From positions 49,385 to 113,384 of the forward strand of contig MGUA01000007.1 in the NCBI GenBank assembly GCA_001799735.1: DNA of 64,000 bases. Direction: 5' to 3'. Positions 13,943 to 40,783 of the stretch are shown piece after piece. The position numbers and the translations under genes were made by a program. The first letter of the stretch is position 1. Each line of letters begins with the position of its first letter. The notes beneath the pieces were generated by a model, which worked only from the letters and a program-made list of their open reading frames with translations, made no database searches and was not told the origin of the DNA. The DNA is from Elusimicrobia bacterium GWB2_63_22. Lineage in GTDB: Bacteria > Elusimicrobiota > Elusimicrobia > Elusimicrobiales > UBA9959.

Positions 13943-13955
13943 TAGAATCTAGGCG
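13943..13955 (+). promoter_or_regulatory. -10 element of the ATP synthase operon, leaderless arrangement
   Basis: TAGAAT (13943-13948) is followed after 6 nt by the GTG start of the first atp gene, so the expected +1 coincides with the start codon. No Shine-Dalgarno or convincing -35 is seen. Confidence 0.5.
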
Positions 13956-14173
13956 TGGCTGACAAAGAGAATCCCTGGGGGTACGCCCAGATAGGACTGG
14001 AACTGGCCGGCGGCGTGCTGCTGGGCTTTTTCGGCGGCTATTGGCTGGACCGGCGGCTGGACACCCTGCCGTGGCTGACGCTGGCGGGGGCCGTGGCCGG
14101 CCTGGCCGCGGGCTTTTTCCTGGTGGCCAGGGAACTTTTTAAAATAGAGCCGCCCGGCGGGGGAAAGAAATGA
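13955..14173 (+). CDS. AtpZ/AtpI-family F0F1-ATPase accessory protein
   Basis: 72 residues with a GTG start and two transmembrane helices (~11-30 and ~38-60) joined by WLDRRLDTLPWL, the pattern of the small AtpZ/AtpI (AtpQ-like) proteins encoded first in many atp operons. These are implicated in c-ring assembly or cation uptake. It overlaps the next gene by 4 bp (ATGA) and leads the ATP synthase operon. Confidence 0.8.
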   Translation: MADKENPWGYAQIGLELAGGVLLGFFGGYWLDRRLDTLPWLTLAGAVAGLAAGFFLVARELFKIEPPGGGKK

Positions 14174-14451
14174 CCGGCCCGGAGGCCGCCCTTTACGGGG
14201 CGCTGCTGGGCGCCGCGTCCGGCGGGCTGTCCCGGCTGGCGCTGAAGCGGGTGATCGGCTCCTCCGACAAGGTTTTTTATTCGGTGTTCGTGGGCGGGGT
14301 TTTTGTCAGGCTCGGGGTATTGGCGGGAGCGGTTTGTCTTTTACGCCGCGAAAGTTATACAATTATTTTCTTGTTTATAGTATTAATGCTGCTGGCGCAG
14401 CTTGTTTTTGAGGCGTTTCCGATAAAGCATGGACCTAAAAGCGCTGCTTGA
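14170..14451 (+). CDS. Small membrane protein in AtpI position
   Basis: 93 residues with three or four hydrophobic segments (~6-22, 38-58, 65-84). It overlaps AtpZ-like by 4 bp and atpB by 23 bp. Its position, size and topology fit an AtpI-type ATP synthase assembly protein, but no diagnostic motif is visible, so this is by context. Confidence 0.65.
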   Translation: MTGPEAALYGALLGAASGGLSRLALKRVIGSSDKVFYSVFVGGVFVRLGVLAGAVCLLRRESYTIIFLFIVLMLLAQLVFEAFPIKHGPKSAA

Positions 14452-15190
14452 ACACCACGTAACGGACCAGATCTGGGCCCGCATTCCCTTTGGCCCCATC
14501 GATCTGCCGCTTTCCAAGCACCTGCTGATGATGGGCATCGCCTCCGCCATCTTGCTCATCGTTTTCCCGCTCATCATCCGCAGCCGCTCGGCCGCGCTGG
14601 CGCCTTTCCGCGGCATGATAGAGGCCACGGTGCTGTTCCTGCGCGACGAGGTGGTGGTCCCCAACATGGGCCACAAGGGCGCGGCCTACACCGGCTACTT
14701 CGCCACGCTGTTCTTCTTTATCCTGCTGATGAACCTCATCGGCCTGGTGCCCTACGGCGCCACCGCCACCGGCAACCTGGCCGTTACGGGCGGCCTGGCG
14801 CTCACCACCTTCGTCCTGATCAACTTCACCGGCATCCGTGAGCAGGGACTGCTGGGCTATTTCGCCCACCTGGTGCCCAAGGGTGTGCCGCTGTGGCTGT
14901 ACCCGCTGATGTTCCCCATAGAGCTGCTGGGCCTGTTCATCAAAACCTTCGCGCTCTGCATCCGTCTTTTCGCCAACATGATAGCCGGCCACATCGTCAT
15001 CCTGGTTTTCATCTGCTTTATCTTCATCTTCGGCGCTTTCAGCTCTATCTTCGGGTTCCTCGTGGCGCCGGTCTCCATAGGGCTGGTGCTGTTCACGCTG
15101 CTGCTGGAGCTGCTGGTGGCCTTTCTGCAGGCCTATATTTTCGTCACGCTGACGGCCATCTTCACCGGCGCGGCGATGCACCCGCATTGA
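14429..15190 (+). CDS. atpB: ATP synthase F0 subunit a
   Basis: 253 residues, polytopic. The conserved helix carrying the essential stator arginine is visible: IKTFALCIRLFANMIAGH, with R179. The C-terminal ELLVAFLQAYIFVTLTAIFTG segment is also diagnostic. It forms the two half-channels next to the c-ring. The start lies inside the 3' end of the preceding gene. Confidence 0.96.
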   Translation: MDLKALLEHHVTDQIWARIPFGPIDLPLSKHLLMMGIASAILLIVFPLIIRSRSAALAPFRGMIEATVLFLRDEVVVPNMGHKGAAYTGYFATLFFFILLMNLIGLVPYGATATGNLAVTGGLALTTFVLINFTGIREQGLLGYFAHLVPKGVPLWLYPLMFPIELLGLFIKTFALCIRLFANMIAGHIVILVFICFIFIFGAFSSIFGFLVAPVSIGLVLFTLLLELLVAFLQAYIFVTLTAIFTGAAMHPH

Positions 15191-15231: not shown

Positions 15232-15528
15232 ATGAACGACCTTACATTCCTCGGACTCGGCTATATCGGCGCCGGCATCGGCGCTGGCCTCACGCTTATA
15301 GGCGCTGGCCTGGGCATCGGCAAGCTGGCTGCGGCCGCCCTTGAAGGCACCGCCCGCCAGCCCGAAGCCGGCCCCGCGCTGCGCACGACCATGATCATCG
15401 CCGCCGCCCTTATAGAAGGCCTCGGCTTCCTGGCGCTGGTCATCTGCTTCTTCGCCGTGATGAACCTGGCCATGCCGAAGGCCCCCGCGGCCCCCGGCGC
15501 GGCGCAGACCGAAACCGCCCGCCACTAA
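15232..15528 (+). CDS. atpE: ATP synthase F0 subunit c
   Basis: 98 residues forming a hairpin of two helices around the polar loop ARQPE. The ion-carrying carboxylate is E62 (AALIEGLGF). The Gln and Ser/Thr positions that complete the Na+ site in sodium ATP synthases are Ile, Gly and Leu here, so proton coupling is inferred. The C-terminus has an Ala/Pro-rich tail. GGAGG lies 8 nt before the ATG, the strongest ribosome site of the operon, matching the need for many c copies. Confidence 0.96.
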   Translation: MNDLTFLGLGYIGAGIGAGLTLIGAGLGIGKLAAAALEGTARQPEAGPALRTTMIIAAALIEGLGFLALVICFFAVMNLAMPKAPAAPGAAQTETARH

Positions 15529-15539
15529 AGGCCGGCTTG

Positions 15540-15606
15540 CCGTCATCCCGGCGGAAGCCGGGATCCAGGCCCGCGGAGGGAACTGGGCGCCGGCTTTCGC
15601 CGGCGA
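15540..15606. repeat. REP-like palindromic pair between atpE and atpF
   Basis: GTCATCCCGGCGGAAGCCGGGATCCAG begins the unit as a hairpin (ATCCCGGC/GCCGGGAT). An inverted partner, GCCGGCTTTCGCCGGC, lies at about 15589-15604. The same family recurs at 20071 and 40714. Inside an operon it could cause partial termination or protect mRNA ends. Confidence 0.75.
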
Positions 15607-15630: not shown

Positions 15631-16152
15631 ATGGAAGCATTGATCAAGCCCGAAATAGGGCTGATGTTCTGGACTATAGCCTGCTTTGTGCTGCTGGCGC
15701 TGCTGCTGTCGCGCACCGCGTGGCGGCCGCTGCTGCAGGCCGTGGAAGAGCGCGAACGGGCCATCAAGCACGACCGGCACACCGCCGAGACCGCCCGCGC
15801 CGAGGCCGAAAAGCTCAAGGCCGAGCTGGACGCCAAACTGGCCGAACTGAAGGCCGAGATCTCCAGCCGCATGGACGAGGCCAGGCTTTCCGCCGAGAGG
15901 GAGAAGGACCTGCTGATAGAGGAGGCGCGCAAGAGCGCCGGCGTGATAATAGAATCCTCCCGCAGGGAGATAGAGGCCCAGAAGAACGAAGCCGCCCGCG
16001 ACCTGAAGAACAAGGTGGCCGAGCTCTCCGTGCTGGCGGCCGAGCGCATCCTGCTGCATCAGCTGGACCACCGCGCCAACACCGACCTGGCCTCCAAGTA
16101 CCTGGCCGAGCTGGAAAAGGAACGCCCCGAGCTGAAGCTGGGCGGCAACTGA
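15631..16152 (+). CDS. atpF: ATP synthase F0 subunit b
   Basis: 173 residues. One N-terminal transmembrane helix (IGLMFWTIACFVLLALLL) is followed by a long, charged coiled coil (~35-150) rich in Ala/Glu/Lys, the peripheral stalk. The stop overlaps the atpH start (TGATG). Confidence 0.95.
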   Translation: MEALIKPEIGLMFWTIACFVLLALLLSRTAWRPLLQAVEERERAIKHDRHTAETARAEAEKLKAELDAKLAELKAEISSRMDEARLSAEREKDLLIEEARKSAGVIIESSRREIEAQKNEAARDLKNKVAELSVLAAERILLHQLDHRANTDLASKYLAELEKERPELKLGGN

Positions 16153-16706
16153 TGGATCTGAGCGCCAGGATACTCGCCAAACGCTACGCCAGGGCCTATA
16201 TGGGCCTGGACGGCAAGACCCACACCCCGGCGGCGGAAGCCGCGGCGCAGAAGAAGCTCGATAGCCTGGGCAAGGTCTTCGAAACGGCCCGGCCGCATCT
16301 CAAGGCGCTCACGCACCCGGTAGTGAACGGCGAGGTCAAGCTGGCGGTGCTGGCGAAGGTGCTGGGTTCCGGTAATTTCGGCCCGGCGGCCGGTTTTGCC
16401 GACCTGCTGGTGCGCCAGAACAGGTTCGGCCTGCTCGAGGACATCATGCGGGAATGCCTGCGCCTCAGCGACCATTTTTGCGGGATAGTAAAAGCGGAGG
16501 TGTACAGCCGCTACCCGCTTTCCGAGGGCGAAGTGAAAAGGATCACCGCCCTCCTCTCCGAAACCGTAGGCAGGAAGATCAGCCTGCGCCAGGTCATAGC
16601 CGAAAGGGTGCTGGGCGGTTTTGAGATCAAGATAGGCGACACCGTTATAGACGCCACCGCGCGCGGCAGGCTGGAGGCCATGAAGGCCGGCCTGCTTAAA
16701 GGATAG
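16152..16706 (+). CDS. atpH: ATP synthase F1 subunit delta
   Basis: 184 residues. The N-terminal helical domain begins LAKRYARAY, and the C-terminal segment [28 protein letters not shown] is the family signature (GG..i..gd.v.D.s...rL..l). It links the peripheral stalk to F1. One-base overlap with atpF and 2 bp to atpA. Confidence 0.95.
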
Positions 16707-16708
16707 TC

Positions 16709-18223
16709 ATGATACGACCAGAAGAGATCACCGATATTATCAAGGGCCGCATCGAGAAATTCATTCCCGAGTCCCAGCTGTCCGAGACGGGGCAGGTGCT
16801 CCAGATCGGCGACGGCATCTCGCGCATCTACGGCCTCAGCTCCGCCGTGGTGGGCGAACTTATAGAATTCGAGGGCGGCGTGGCCGGCATGGTGCTCAAT
16901 ATCGAGCGCGAGAACGTCGGCGCCGTGGTCATGGGCTCCGACACGCTCATCAAGGAAGGCGACCGGGTAAAGCGCACCGGCCGCGTGCTCGAGGTCCCGG
17001 TGGGCCCCGAGCTGATAGGCCGCGTGGTGGACGCGCTGGGCAACCCGATAGACGGCAAAGGCCCGCTCAACGCCAAGAAGAAGCGCCCCGTGGAAGTGAT
17101 CGCCCCCGGCGTGGTGGAGCGCGCTCCCGTGAAAGAGCCGCTGCAGACCGGCCTTAAGGCTATAGACGCCATGATCCCGATAGGCCGCGGCCAGCGCGAG
17201 CTCATCATCGGCGACCGCCAGACCGGCAAGACCGCCGTGGCGCTGGACGCCATCATCAACCAGAAGAACGAGCCCGCCGACAGGCGCCCCATCTGCATCT
17301 ACGTGGCCATCGGCCAGAAAGAATCCACCGTGGCCCGCGTCGCCAAGATCCTCGAGGACAACGGCGCGATGGAGTATTCGGTCATAGTTTCCGCCTCCGC
17401 CTCCCAGCCGGCCTCCATGCTCTACCTGGCGCCGTACACCGGCTGCGCCATCGGCGAGGAATTCATGTGGAACGGCCGGCACGCCCTGGTCATCTACGAC
17501 GACCTTTCCAAGCACGCGCAGAGCTACCGCCAGATGTCGCTGCTGCTGCGGCGCCCGCCGGGCCGCGAAGCCTACCCCGGCGACGTGTTCTACCTCCACT
17601 CCCGCCTGCTCGAGCGCGCCTGCAAACTGTGCGACAAGAACGGCGGCGGCTCGCTGACGGCCCTGCCCATCATCGAAACCCAGGCCAGCGACGTGACGGC
17701 CTACATCCCGACCAACGTGATTTCCATCACCGACGGCCAGATCTACCTGGAGTCGAGCCTGTTCCACTCCGGCATCAAGCCCGCGGTCAACGTGGGTATT
17801 TCGGTGTCCCGCGTAGGCAGCTCGGCGCAGATAAAGGCCATGAAGCAGGTGGCCGGCCAGCTGCGCCTGGACCTGGCGCAGTACAACGAGCTCGCGGCCT
17901 TCGCGCAGTTCGGCAGCGACCTGGACAAAGCCAGCACCGACCTGCTTAAGCGCGGCCAGCGCATGGTGGAACTGCTCAAGCAGGACCAGTACTCGCCGAT
18001 GCCCGTGCAGGAACAGGTGGCGGTGCTGTTCGCCGGCACCAAGGGCCACCTCGACGAGGTGGAGCTGGAGAAGGTGAAGCATTTCGAGGGTTCCCTGGTG
18101 AAGTTCCTGCGGGACTCCTACGCCAACCTGCTGGCCGACATCGCCGAGAAACGGCAGCTGGACCAGGAGCTGGAGCAGCGCCTGGCCGACGCGATAGCGG
18201 ATTTCAAGAAGAAGTTCGTTTGA
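16709..18223 (+). CDS. atpA: ATP synthase F1 subunit alpha
   Basis: 504 residues, full length. Beta-barrel, then P-loop GDRQTGKT (168-175), the [15 protein letters not shown] segment and [17 protein letters not shown] (alpha signature), and a helical C-terminal domain. Non-catalytic nucleotide-binding subunit of the F1 hexamer. The epimerase gene follows after 7 bp. Confidence 0.98.
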
Positions 18224-18230
18224 GGAAGCT

Positions 18231-19154
18231 ATGAAAAAGTACCTTGTCACCGGCGGCGCCGGGTTTGTGGGTTCCAACCTGGCTTTCGCCCTGGAAACGG
18301 AGCGCAAGGCCAGGGTGACCGTGCTGGACAATTTCTCGTCCGGCAATTACAAGAACCTGGTGGGTTTCACCGGCGACGTGGTCGCTGGCGATATCCTTGC
18401 CTGCGACTGGTTCGACAAGGTGGGGGAACTGGACGCCATTTTCCACCAGGCCGCGGTGGTGGACACCACCGTTACCGACCAGCGCGCCATGATGGCCGCC
18501 AACGTGGACGGTTTCCGCAACGTGCTGAAATTCGCGCTGAAGGCCGGCGTGAAGCGGGTAGTCTACGCCTCCTCCGCCGCCGTCTACGGCAACTCCAAGT
18601 GCCCGATGCACGAGGGCCAGGCCGCGACCCCCGAGAACGTCTACGGCTTTTCCAAGGCCATAATGGACAACGTGGCGCGCGAGTTCGCCGCGGCCCACAA
18701 GGACTTCACGCTAGTCGGGCTGCGCTACTTCAACGTCTACGGTCCGCGCGAATATTACAAGGGCAAGATGGCCAGCATGGTCTTCCAGCTTTACACTCAG
18801 ATGAAGGCCGGCCGGCGGCCGCGCGTCTTCAAGTACGGCGAGCAGATGCGCGACTTCGTCTACGTCAAAGACCTCGTGCGCGCCAACCTGAACGCGCTGG
18901 ACGCGGAAAAATCCTGCGTCTGCAACGTCGCCACCGGCAAGCCCTGCAACTTCAACGAGGTGATCGAGGCGCTCAATAAGGCCCTGAAGACCGACCTGGC
19001 GCCCGAGTATTTCGACAATCCCTACTCTTTCCTGCAGCTCAAGACGCAGGCCGACCTGCGCAACGCCAAGGCGCTGCTGAACTACCGCCCCGAGTGGAGC
19101 CTGGCCGACGGCATAGCCGATTACGTGAAGATACTGGAGAAAACGCGGATCTAA
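18231..19154 (+). CDS. NAD-dependent sugar-nucleotide epimerase (HldD-like), embedded in the atp operon
   Basis: 307 residues, extended SDR family. NAD-binding TGGAGFVGSN (7-16) and catalytic Y138-x3-K142. The substrate-side segment LRYFNVYGPREYYKGKMASM and the following QMRDFVYVKDLV strongly resemble ADP-L-glycero-D-manno-heptose 6-epimerase (HldD/RfaD), though other GalE-like specificities are possible. It lies in frame with the operon, 7 bp after atpA (with a GAGGAAG ribosome site) and 9 bp before atpG, so it must be co-transcribed with ATP synthase. It is not a known ATP synthase component. Confidence 0.85.
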   Translation: MKKYLVTGGAGFVGSNLAFALETERKARVTVLDNFSSGNYKNLVGFTGDVVAGDILACDWFDKVGELDAIFHQAAVVDTTVTDQRAMMAANVDGFRNVLKFALKAGVKRVVYASSAAVYGNSKCPMHEGQAATPENVYGFSKAIMDNVAREFAAAHKDFTLVGLRYFNVYGPREYYKGKMASMVFQLYTQMKAGRRPRVFKYGEQMRDFVYVKDLVRANLNALDAEKSCVCNVATGKPCNFNEVIEALNKALKTDLAPEYFDNPYSFLQLKTQADLRNAKALLNYRPEWSLADGIADYVKILEKTRI

Positions 19155-19163
19155 AGCCCAACT

Positions 19164-21544
<2,381 letters not shown>

Positions 21545-21997: not shown

Positions 21998-22028
21998 ACA
22001 CCCCGCCTTCCGGCGGGGTGTTTTTTTT
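21998..22028 (+). terminator. Intrinsic terminator of the ATP synthase operon
   Basis: The stem CACCCCGCC/GGCGGGGTG with loop TTCC is followed by eight T. Confidence 0.93.
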
Positions 22029-22031
22029 GAA

Positions 22032-22086
22032 TGGGGTCAGGTCTTGAATCTTGACATTTAATGTCAAGATTCAAGACCTGACCCCA
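22032..22086. repeat. 55-nt perfect palindrome (GGGGTCAGGTCTTGAATC family)
   Basis: 27-bp arms (22032-22058 and 22060-22086) are perfectly complementary around one central T. The same arm recurs at 59461-59547. It sits between convergent genes, immediately 3' of the ubiE-like stop codon. Probably a REP/RAYT-type mobile palindrome. Confidence 0.88.
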
Positions 22087-40713: not shown

Positions 40714-40783
40714 CGTCATTCCGGCGGAAGCCGGAATCCAGTCAATAACAGTGCCTGGGCCCCGGCTTTCGCCGGGGCGACGA
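40714..40783. repeat. REP-like palindromic pair
   Basis: GTCATTCCGGCGGAAGCCGG opens a hairpin, and an inverted partner (CCCCGGCTTTCGCCGGGG) lies at about 40759-40778. Same family as 15540 and 20071; it ends next to the ychF stop codon. Confidence 0.72.

What the first reader, a model, noticed from the sequence alone, without database searches (positions are those of the whole stretch)
18231..19154. HldD-like epimerase inserted between atpA and atpG
All nine other genes are ATP synthase genes in standard order. The epimerase is tightly spaced (7 bp and 9 bp), keeps its catalytic Y138/K142 and shares the local codon style. Either it is a chance insertion fixed in this lineage, or envelope sugar synthesis is co-regulated with energy supply.
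Basis: partly seen in the sequence, partly recalled or inferred. Interest (0 to 1): 0.5.

Follow-up and report, generated by a model that had tools for sequence, protein, structure and literature searches.

The report
LPS sugar epimerase inside ATP-synthase operon
In one class of little-studied bacteria (Elusimicrobia) the gene for an enzyme that prepares a sugar of the outer-membrane coat sits in the middle of the normally uninterrupted ATP-synthase operon, and most genomes examined from that class have kept it there.

Summary
An intact HldD-type gene (ADP-glyceromanno-heptose 6-epimerase) lies 7 bp after atpA and 9 bp before atpG in an otherwise complete atp operon. It is neither recent nor a misassembly: of 101 genomes of the same class examined, 91 have it next to atpG and one has it a gene away; four have an empty atpA-atpG junction; five could not be judged. 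The protein tests as HldD: curated model over cut-off, predicted fold nearest H. pylori HldD, catalytic residues invariant, low dN/dS. The rest of the ADP-heptose pathway lies elsewhere in the genome. One relative lacks both this gene and the heptose kinase of an otherwise similar LPS cluster. Whether the slot was filled once and later emptied, or filled twice, is unresolved. Most likely it is an ordinary HldD made from the ATP-synthase transcript and kept there by operon inertia, perhaps with useful growth-linked dosage; activity and transcription were not testable. A known enzyme at an unusual, old address; my searches of open papers listed no description of it.

The parts
18231..19154 (+). 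hldD-like ADP-glyceromanno-heptose 6-epimerase gene (307 aa)
   Evidence: TIGR02197 303.6 bits, cut-off 274.6; nearest solved protein by sequence H. pylori HldD 3sxp, E 1.6e-73; best fold match 3sxp, TM 0.90
13955..14173 (+). atpZ-like gene (PF09527 ATPase_gene1), GTG start
   Evidence: Pfam 2e-16; coordinates
14170..14451 (+). atpI-like ORF, 93 aa, no Pfam match; named by position only
14429..15190 (+). atpB (subunit a)
   Evidence: TIGR01131 150.8 bits, cut-off 102.6
15232..15528 (+). atpE (subunit c), 98 aa
   Evidence: located by sequence; not run against a family model
15631..16152 (+). atpF (subunit b)
   Evidence: PF00430; TIGR01144 87 bits, cut-off 65.5
16152..16706 (+). atpH (subunit delta)
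   Evidence: TIGR01145 83.3 bits, cut-off 57.5; start
16709..18223 (+). atpA (subunit alpha)
   Evidence: TIGR00962 818.9 bits
19164..20069 (+). atpG (subunit gamma)
   Evidence: TIGR01146 273.1 bits
20126..21544 (+). atpD (subunit beta)
   Evidence: TIGR01039 782.1 bits
21549..21974 (+). atpC (subunit epsilon)
   Evidence: TIGR01216 104.0 bits, cut-off 67.25
22032..22086 (.). perfect 27-bp inverted repeat after atpC, between the converging atpC and a ubiE/menG-like gene; possible two-way terminator
   Evidence: I1; terminator-like sites at 22004 and 22036 on +

Best explanation
The gene encodes a genuine HldD: it inverts carbon 6 of ADP-D-glycero-D-manno-heptose to give ADP-L-glycero-D-manno-heptose for the inner core of LPS. 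It is carried as a guest gene on the ATP-synthase transcript (with a possible Shine-Dalgarno sequence overlapping the atpA stop codon, read), so its dose should follow atp expression. It entered the atpA-atpG junction early in the history of this class and has since been inherited mainly vertically and kept functional. In a few lineages it was lost or lies elsewhere, with the ATP-synthase junction intact, so it is not needed for ATP synthase itself. Shown: identity by family, predicted fold and catalytic residues; location; wide conservation; purifying selection; presence of the rest of the pathway; empty junctions. Inferred: enzyme activity, co-transcription, growth-linked expression, and that the location persists mainly through operon inertia.
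For: HldD identity: TIGR02197 over cut-off; H. pylori HldD is the closest solved protein by sequence and by predicted fold (mean pLDDT 94.0; 3sxp E 1.9e-36, TM 0.90, 45% identity). S114, S115, Y138, K142 and K177 are invariant in the 83 distinct proteins treated as atp-linked (a few seen with one neighbour only) and in the other 19 aligned. Pathway in the same genome: gmhA-like, heptose-7-phosphate kinase and adenylyltransferase domains, GmhB-like phosphatase, and an LPS cluster with a heptosyltransferase II match over cut-off, GmhB-like, kinase, KdsB and PyrG. Each of the 49 genomes (of 57) with a TIGR02197 match at 1e-45 has exactly one. Location: 57 of 61 relatives have it next to atpG, 56 of them with atpA on the other side; 34 of 40 further genomes with a hit have it next to atpG; 66 of 80 named GTDB loci have both neighbours (these overlap the other sets). 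The epimerase tree and the ATP-synthase tree agree on the main groups of the class. Purifying selection: dN/dS 0.012-0.255 in 11 pairs (dS above 1 in two of them). Linked loss: G036, the one empty junction seen in the window's family, is also the only one of 57 genomes without the kinase and the only one without the adenylyltransferase domain; in its LPS cluster no kinase lies between GmhB-like and KdsB.
Against: No activity or transcript data exist. Eight of the 49 genomes score slightly under the TIGR02197 cut-off (259.0-274.2 bits). The gene is not clustered with other heptose genes here. In the window's genome the gmhA-like and adenylyltransferase matches are just under their cut-offs. G036 has a different HldD elsewhere but no detected kinase, so its pathway state is unclear, and that genome is 89% complete. 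The AU test rejects one clade for all atp-linked proteins (p 6e-7), so a single insertion is not shown, and the two trees differ in how f4, f9 and f3 branch. Of the 11 genomes outside the class, seven have the heptose kinase but no HldD match at 1e-45, as has G101 inside the class, so co-occurrence with the pathway is loose.
Confidence: 0.78

Rival explanations
1. Adaptive co-regulation: selection keeps the ADP-heptose epimerase on the atp transcript because LPS core supply should follow energy status, and the slot may have been filled twice independently (family f4, and the ancestor of f1, f2, f7, f8).
For: The epimerase of f4 groups with the unlinked ones of f9 and f3 and with Omnitrophota, away from the other atp-linked proteins; one clade for all linked rows is rejected. 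Counting events on the ATP-synthase tree, two gains plus one loss (G036) is no worse than one gain plus three losses or moves.
Against: The epimerase tree has the same main groups as the ATP-synthase tree, as expected from one early insertion with later relocation in f9/f3; the Omnitrophota proteins could come from transfer out of this class. Other unrelated genes (PilZ, DUF4932, small ORFs) also sit in atp junctions in this class, which suggests tolerance rather than specific selection.
Confidence: 0.2
2. Moonlighting: the protein also acts in ATP synthase assembly or regulation, which is why it stays between alpha and gamma.
For: Conserved position between the genes of two touching subunits.
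Against: Four genomes have atpA next to atpG with no epimerase between (G036, G154, G084, G101); active-site residues are conserved as in an enzyme; three of the four carry an HldD elsewhere, as expected for a pathway enzyme.
Confidence: 0.03
3. It is a sugar-nucleotide epimerase of another specificity (GalE- or WbpP-like) in the HldD-like group.
For: GalE- and WbpP-like structures have TM-scores similar to E. coli HldD; eight class members fall just under the HldD cut-off.
Against: The best sequence and fold match is H. pylori HldD by a clear margin in E-value; galE scores 127.8 bits against a cut-off of 262.3; the heptose pathway is present, and this gene and the kinase are missing together in G036.
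Confidence: 0.12
4. Recent insertion or assembly error in this genome only.
For: None found.
Against: The gene lies next to atpG in 91 of 101 class genomes, at 47-85% protein identity to the window.
Confidence: 0.005

Closest known systems
HldD / RfaD, ADP-L-glycero-D-manno-heptose 6-epimerase, H. pylori type (PDB 3sxp)
   Same: 45% identity in the fold alignment, TM 0.90, TIGR02197 over cut-off, aligned catalytic Ser/Tyr/Lys and second Lys
   Different: Gene lies in the ATP-synthase operon, away from the LPS genes of its own genome
The other HldD branch of this phylum (G064, G076, G112; also G106 and G036)
   Same: Same family by TIGR02197, 370-395.6 bits; 32% identity between our profile and the G076 protein
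   Different: A separate branch of the tree (long branches). The G076 protein is nearer to E. coli 1eq2 than to 3sxp (the other four were not tested). In G076 the heptose kinase is next to it and the following ORFs read by eye as KDO genes (not scanned)
Standard bacterial atp operon a-c-b-delta-alpha-gamma-beta-epsilon
   Same: All eight subunit genes in standard order
   Different: A non-ATPase gene between alpha and gamma. A survey of 2248 strains stresses the constant order and says interruption would be disadvantageous (PMC5709465, passages seen; the term Elusimicrob does not occur in its main text)
glmU-glmS next to the E. coli atp operon (recalled, not from a call)
   Same: Envelope-sugar genes beside atp genes
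   Different: There they lie after atpC, not inside the operon

Membership tests
HldD (TIGR02197) | Score over the curated cut-off | tested here: met
   303.6 bits against 274.6
HldD (TIGR02197) | Extended SDR fold closest to a solved HldD | tested here: met
   Model pLDDT 94.0; best PDB match 3sxp
HldD (TIGR02197) | Glycine-rich nucleotide motif and Ser/Tyr-x-x-x-Lys | tested here: met
   G8, G11, G14, S114, S115, Y138, K142 invariant in 83 proteins treated as linked
HldD (TIGR02197) | Second catalytic base, Lys178 of E. coli (two-base mechanism and numbering recalled, not from a call) | tested here: met
   K177 aligns with the Lys of GHKGS in 1eq2 and is invariant in all 102 aligned proteins
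HldD (TIGR02197) | Other ADP-heptose pathway genes in the genome | tested here: met
   Kinase over cut-off; heptosyltransferase II 147.9 against 134.6 for the whole protein, 126.5 in the genome search; gmhA-like 202.6 against 209.45, just under; adenylyltransferase domain 177.8 against 181.5, just under; GmhB-like phosphatase over the domain cut-off but under the GmhB cut-offs
HldD (TIGR02197) | Epimerase activity on ADP-D,D-heptose; NADP preference | not testable with these tools
   Needs protein
F-type atp operon gene | Encodes a subunit or assembly factor of ATP synthase | tested here: not met
   No ATP-synthase family among its listed matches; four genomes have atpA next to atpG without it

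The most novel reading that the evidence does not exclude
The atpA-atpG slot was filled independently by the same enzyme twice in this class, because tying ADP-heptose supply to the ATP-synthase transcript is advantageous: an energy-gated control of LPS core synthesis.
Probability: 0.15. Interest if true: 0.6.

Novelty: new variant of a known kind. Interest (0 to 1): 0.42.

Why it matters
The F-type atp operon is a standard example of conserved gene order. A metabolic gene held inside it across most sampled members of a class shows that the order can be broken and the break kept for a long time. A filled or empty junction is easy to score, even in metagenome fragments. It gives a natural test of whether operon membership reflects regulation or inertia. 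It also shows where the heptose epimerase gene is for anyone reconstructing LPS synthesis in these mostly uncultured bacteria.

Tried and rejected
Recent insertion or misassembly: rejected. Pseudogene: rejected (no stop inside any hit listed; dN/dS 0.012-0.255 in 11 pairs by NG86, of which two pairs have dS above 1).

Plain single clade of atp-linked genes: rejected by the AU test on 38 representative rows of 102 (p 6e-7). That group was defined by gene location, not by the tree. Adding the two unlinked class members G154 and G084 is also rejected (p 0.0006), but I chose that second group after seeing the tree. Omnitrophota proteins sit among them; long branches are flagged.

The first atp tree held a truncated row for the window (locus L051, with a wrong atpD) and one very long branch (G076). 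The window's own proteins replaced the first, G076 was dropped, and the tree was rebuilt (36 rows).

Internal promoter or terminator: a sigma-70 and intrinsic-terminator consensus scan found none on the + strand between 15195 and 22004; weak evidence for one transcript. Two ORFs that lie in atp junctions of relatives were scanned without a family result or not scanned: the G118 ORF had no Pfam match and the G164 ORF was not scanned (one search failed on it).

Literature: searches (open PMC library only). I saw listings, in part only (for instance 12 of 78, 15 of 23, 10 of 47, 12 of 15, 5 of 33), passages of PMC5709465 and passages of PMC9476967. None that I saw describes the arrangement; more cannot be said. 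Genome-wide codon comparison was not possible and was done inside the window only. Gene order outside the phylum rests on the 11 unlinked loci, whose flanks are at most 4 kb and partly cut by contig ends.

Full report
What is there. The window carries an F-type ATP-synthase operon on the + strand: atpZ-like, atpI-like, atpB, atpE, atpF, atpH, atpA, then an epimerase gene at 18231-19154, then atpG, atpD, atpC. The gaps around the epimerase are 7 bp and 9 bp. The epimerase matches TIGR02197 (ADP-glyceromanno-heptose 6-epimerase) over its cut-off, 303.6 against 274.6 bits. Its codon style and GC3 (0.879) resemble the atp genes. A consensus scan found no + strand promoter-like site between 14363 and the end of atpC, and no + strand terminator-like site between 15195 and 22004, which is compatible with one transcript. 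A perfect 27-bp inverted repeat follows atpC.

How old and how common. I searched the epimerase, AtpG and AtpA in the 61 'relatives' genomes. In 56 of 61 the epimerase lies between atpA and atpG, each match within 200 bp of the next; in one more (G034) it lies next to atpG and atpA is on another contig; three incomplete genomes (G006, G008, G020) gave no atpG; one (G036) has atpA and atpG side by side without it. I then searched the epimerase (E up to 1e-60) and AtpG (E up to 1e-10) in 149 genomes drawn from the phylum; 71 of these are in the window's class and 78 in others. Forty genomes not in the first set were compared: 39 class genomes with a hit to either protein, and G067 of another class. 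In 34 of the 40 the two genes lie within 300 bp; G158 has one DUF4932 gene between them; G170 has atpG at a contig start; G154 and G084 have the epimerase elsewhere; G101 has none; G067 has no atpG. With G106 (neither found at these thresholds) the class total is 101 genomes: 91 adjacent, 1 in the operon with a gene between, 4 with an empty junction, 5 not testable (G006, G008, G020, G106, G170). For the 34, the atpA side was checked in 18: atpA is upstream in all 18, with a further ORF between atpA and the epimerase in seven. Of the 78 genomes of other classes, only G067 has a match to this epimerase at E up to 1e-60.

Named organisms. A scan of GTDB contigs returned 80 loci (228 relatives found, best 80 kept): 66 have atpA and atpG on both sides within 300 bp, 3 on one side, 11 on neither. 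The linked ones are named Elusimicrobia, Elusimicrobiota, Elusimicrobiales, Elusimicrobiaceae or Elusimicrobium, or are unnamed bacteria; 8 of the 11 unlinked ones are named Omnitrophota or Omnitrophica. These loci overlap the genome sets above and are not an independent count.

Empty junctions. In G036 the atpA stop codon is followed directly by the atpG start. G154, G084 and G101 also have atpA next to atpG.

Is it really HldD. Beside the family score, the nearest solved protein is H. pylori HldD (3sxp) by sequence and by predicted fold (TM 0.90, 45% identity; E. coli HldD 1eq2: TM 0.90, 35%). Other sugar epimerases have similar TM-scores but weaker E-values. In 102 distinct aligned proteins the residues S114, S115, Y138, K142 and K177 do not vary. 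K177 aligns with the lysine that I recall as the second base of the E. coli enzyme. The gene is under purifying selection (11 pairs, dN/dS 0.012-0.255). Five of the 57 genomes carry instead an HldD of a separate branch (G064, G076, G112 of other classes; G106 of the same class; G036 of the same family). The G076 protein is nearer to E. coli HldD. No genome of the 57 shows both types: 49 have exactly one match at E up to 1e-45 and eight have none.

Pathway. Of 57 genomes, 56 have the heptose-7-phosphate kinase domain (52 over cut-off), 56 a gmhA-like isomerase (only 4 over cut-off, many just under, G096 and G136 weak, none in G040), and 56 the adenylyltransferase domain (19 over cut-off). In the window's genome the kinase, a GmhB-like phosphatase, a heptosyltransferase II match over cut-off, KdsB and PyrG lie together on contig C33, so HldD sits apart from them; the gmhA-like and adenylyltransferase genes are on other contigs. 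G036 is the one genome without the kinase and the one without the adenylyltransferase domain. Its LPS cluster is similar (heptosyltransferase II, LpxK, GmhB-like, KdsB, and an ORF whose start reads as PyrG) and contiguous, and no kinase lies between GmhB-like and KdsB. So the kinase is missing from its usual place and not only from the assembly; the adenylyltransferase could be an assembly gap. That the atp-linked epimerase and the kinase are missing from the same genome is independent support for a shared pathway. It is a single case, the genome is 89% complete, and it keeps a different HldD.

History. A tree of AtpA+AtpD+AtpG gives {f4,(f9,f3)} as sister to {f5,((f7,f8),(f1,f2))}. The slot is filled in f4, f7, f8, f1 and f2 (except G036) and empty in f9, f3 and f5. 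The epimerase trees have the same main groups, with Omnitrophota proteins beside f4/f9/f3 and, weakly, beside f7/f8; within the first group f4 pairs with f9 (96/63), whereas the ATP-synthase tree pairs f9 with f3 (99/97). Hence either one insertion in the ancestor of the class with loss or relocation in f9+f3, f5 and G036, or two insertions (f4; ancestor of f7, f8, f1, f2) with one loss. The AU test rejects a single clade of linked proteins (p 6e-7), but this could arise under both histories if f9/f3 relocated and genes moved to Omnitrophota. I leave it open.

Guests elsewhere in the operon. Six genomes of f7 and f8 (G118, G122, G132, G143, G156, G178) and locus L148 have a small ORF of 141-164 aa with a signal-like start between atpA and the epimerase; G108 and G128 of f7 do not. 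G164 has a 178 aa ORF there. G122 has a PilZ-domain gene between atpG and atpD. So the atp operon of this class tolerates guests at several junctions. This favours tolerance plus inertia as the reason for the location, though a benefit of growth-linked expression is not excluded.

Verdict. A true observation, a known enzyme, an unusual and old address. In the searches in the open PMC library I saw no description of it; I saw listings in part and passages of two papers only.

Noticed in passing
L173 4717-5231; the same place in L174, L177, L212, L213, L214, L148: Six genomes of f7/f8 and L148 carry an extra 141-164 aa ORF with a signal-peptide-like start between atpA and the epimerase; no Pfam match for the one tested (G118).
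   Followed up: partly
L173 7074-7500; L177 6700-7040: PilZ-domain ORF between atpG and atpD in G122 (PF07238, 5.2e-14); a similar-looking ORF in G143 (not scanned).
   Followed up: partly
L183 5501-6613: DUF4932 gene (PF16286) between the epimerase and atpG in G158.
   Followed up: partly
window 15542-15565, 20072-20095, 40715-40738: Hairpin repeat GTCATCCCGGCGAAAGCCGGGATC: two copies inside the atp operon (after atpE, one mismatch; after atpG, exact) and one with three mismatches at 40715; none in 100 shuffles.
   Followed up: partly
window 22032-22086: Perfect 27-bp inverted repeat with a 1-nt loop between atpC and the converging ubiE/menG-like gene.
   Followed up: no
G001, G003, G007, G010 and others (weaker matches at about 30% identity): Several relatives have further rotary-ATPase-like genes, perhaps V-type, about 8-12 kb downstream of the F-type operon on the same contig; none for the window's genome in the rows shown, but its third match was not shown.
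   Followed up: no
L189 4135-5121: G036 carries an HldD of the other branch on another contig although no heptose kinase was found; origin and role unclear.
   Followed up: partly
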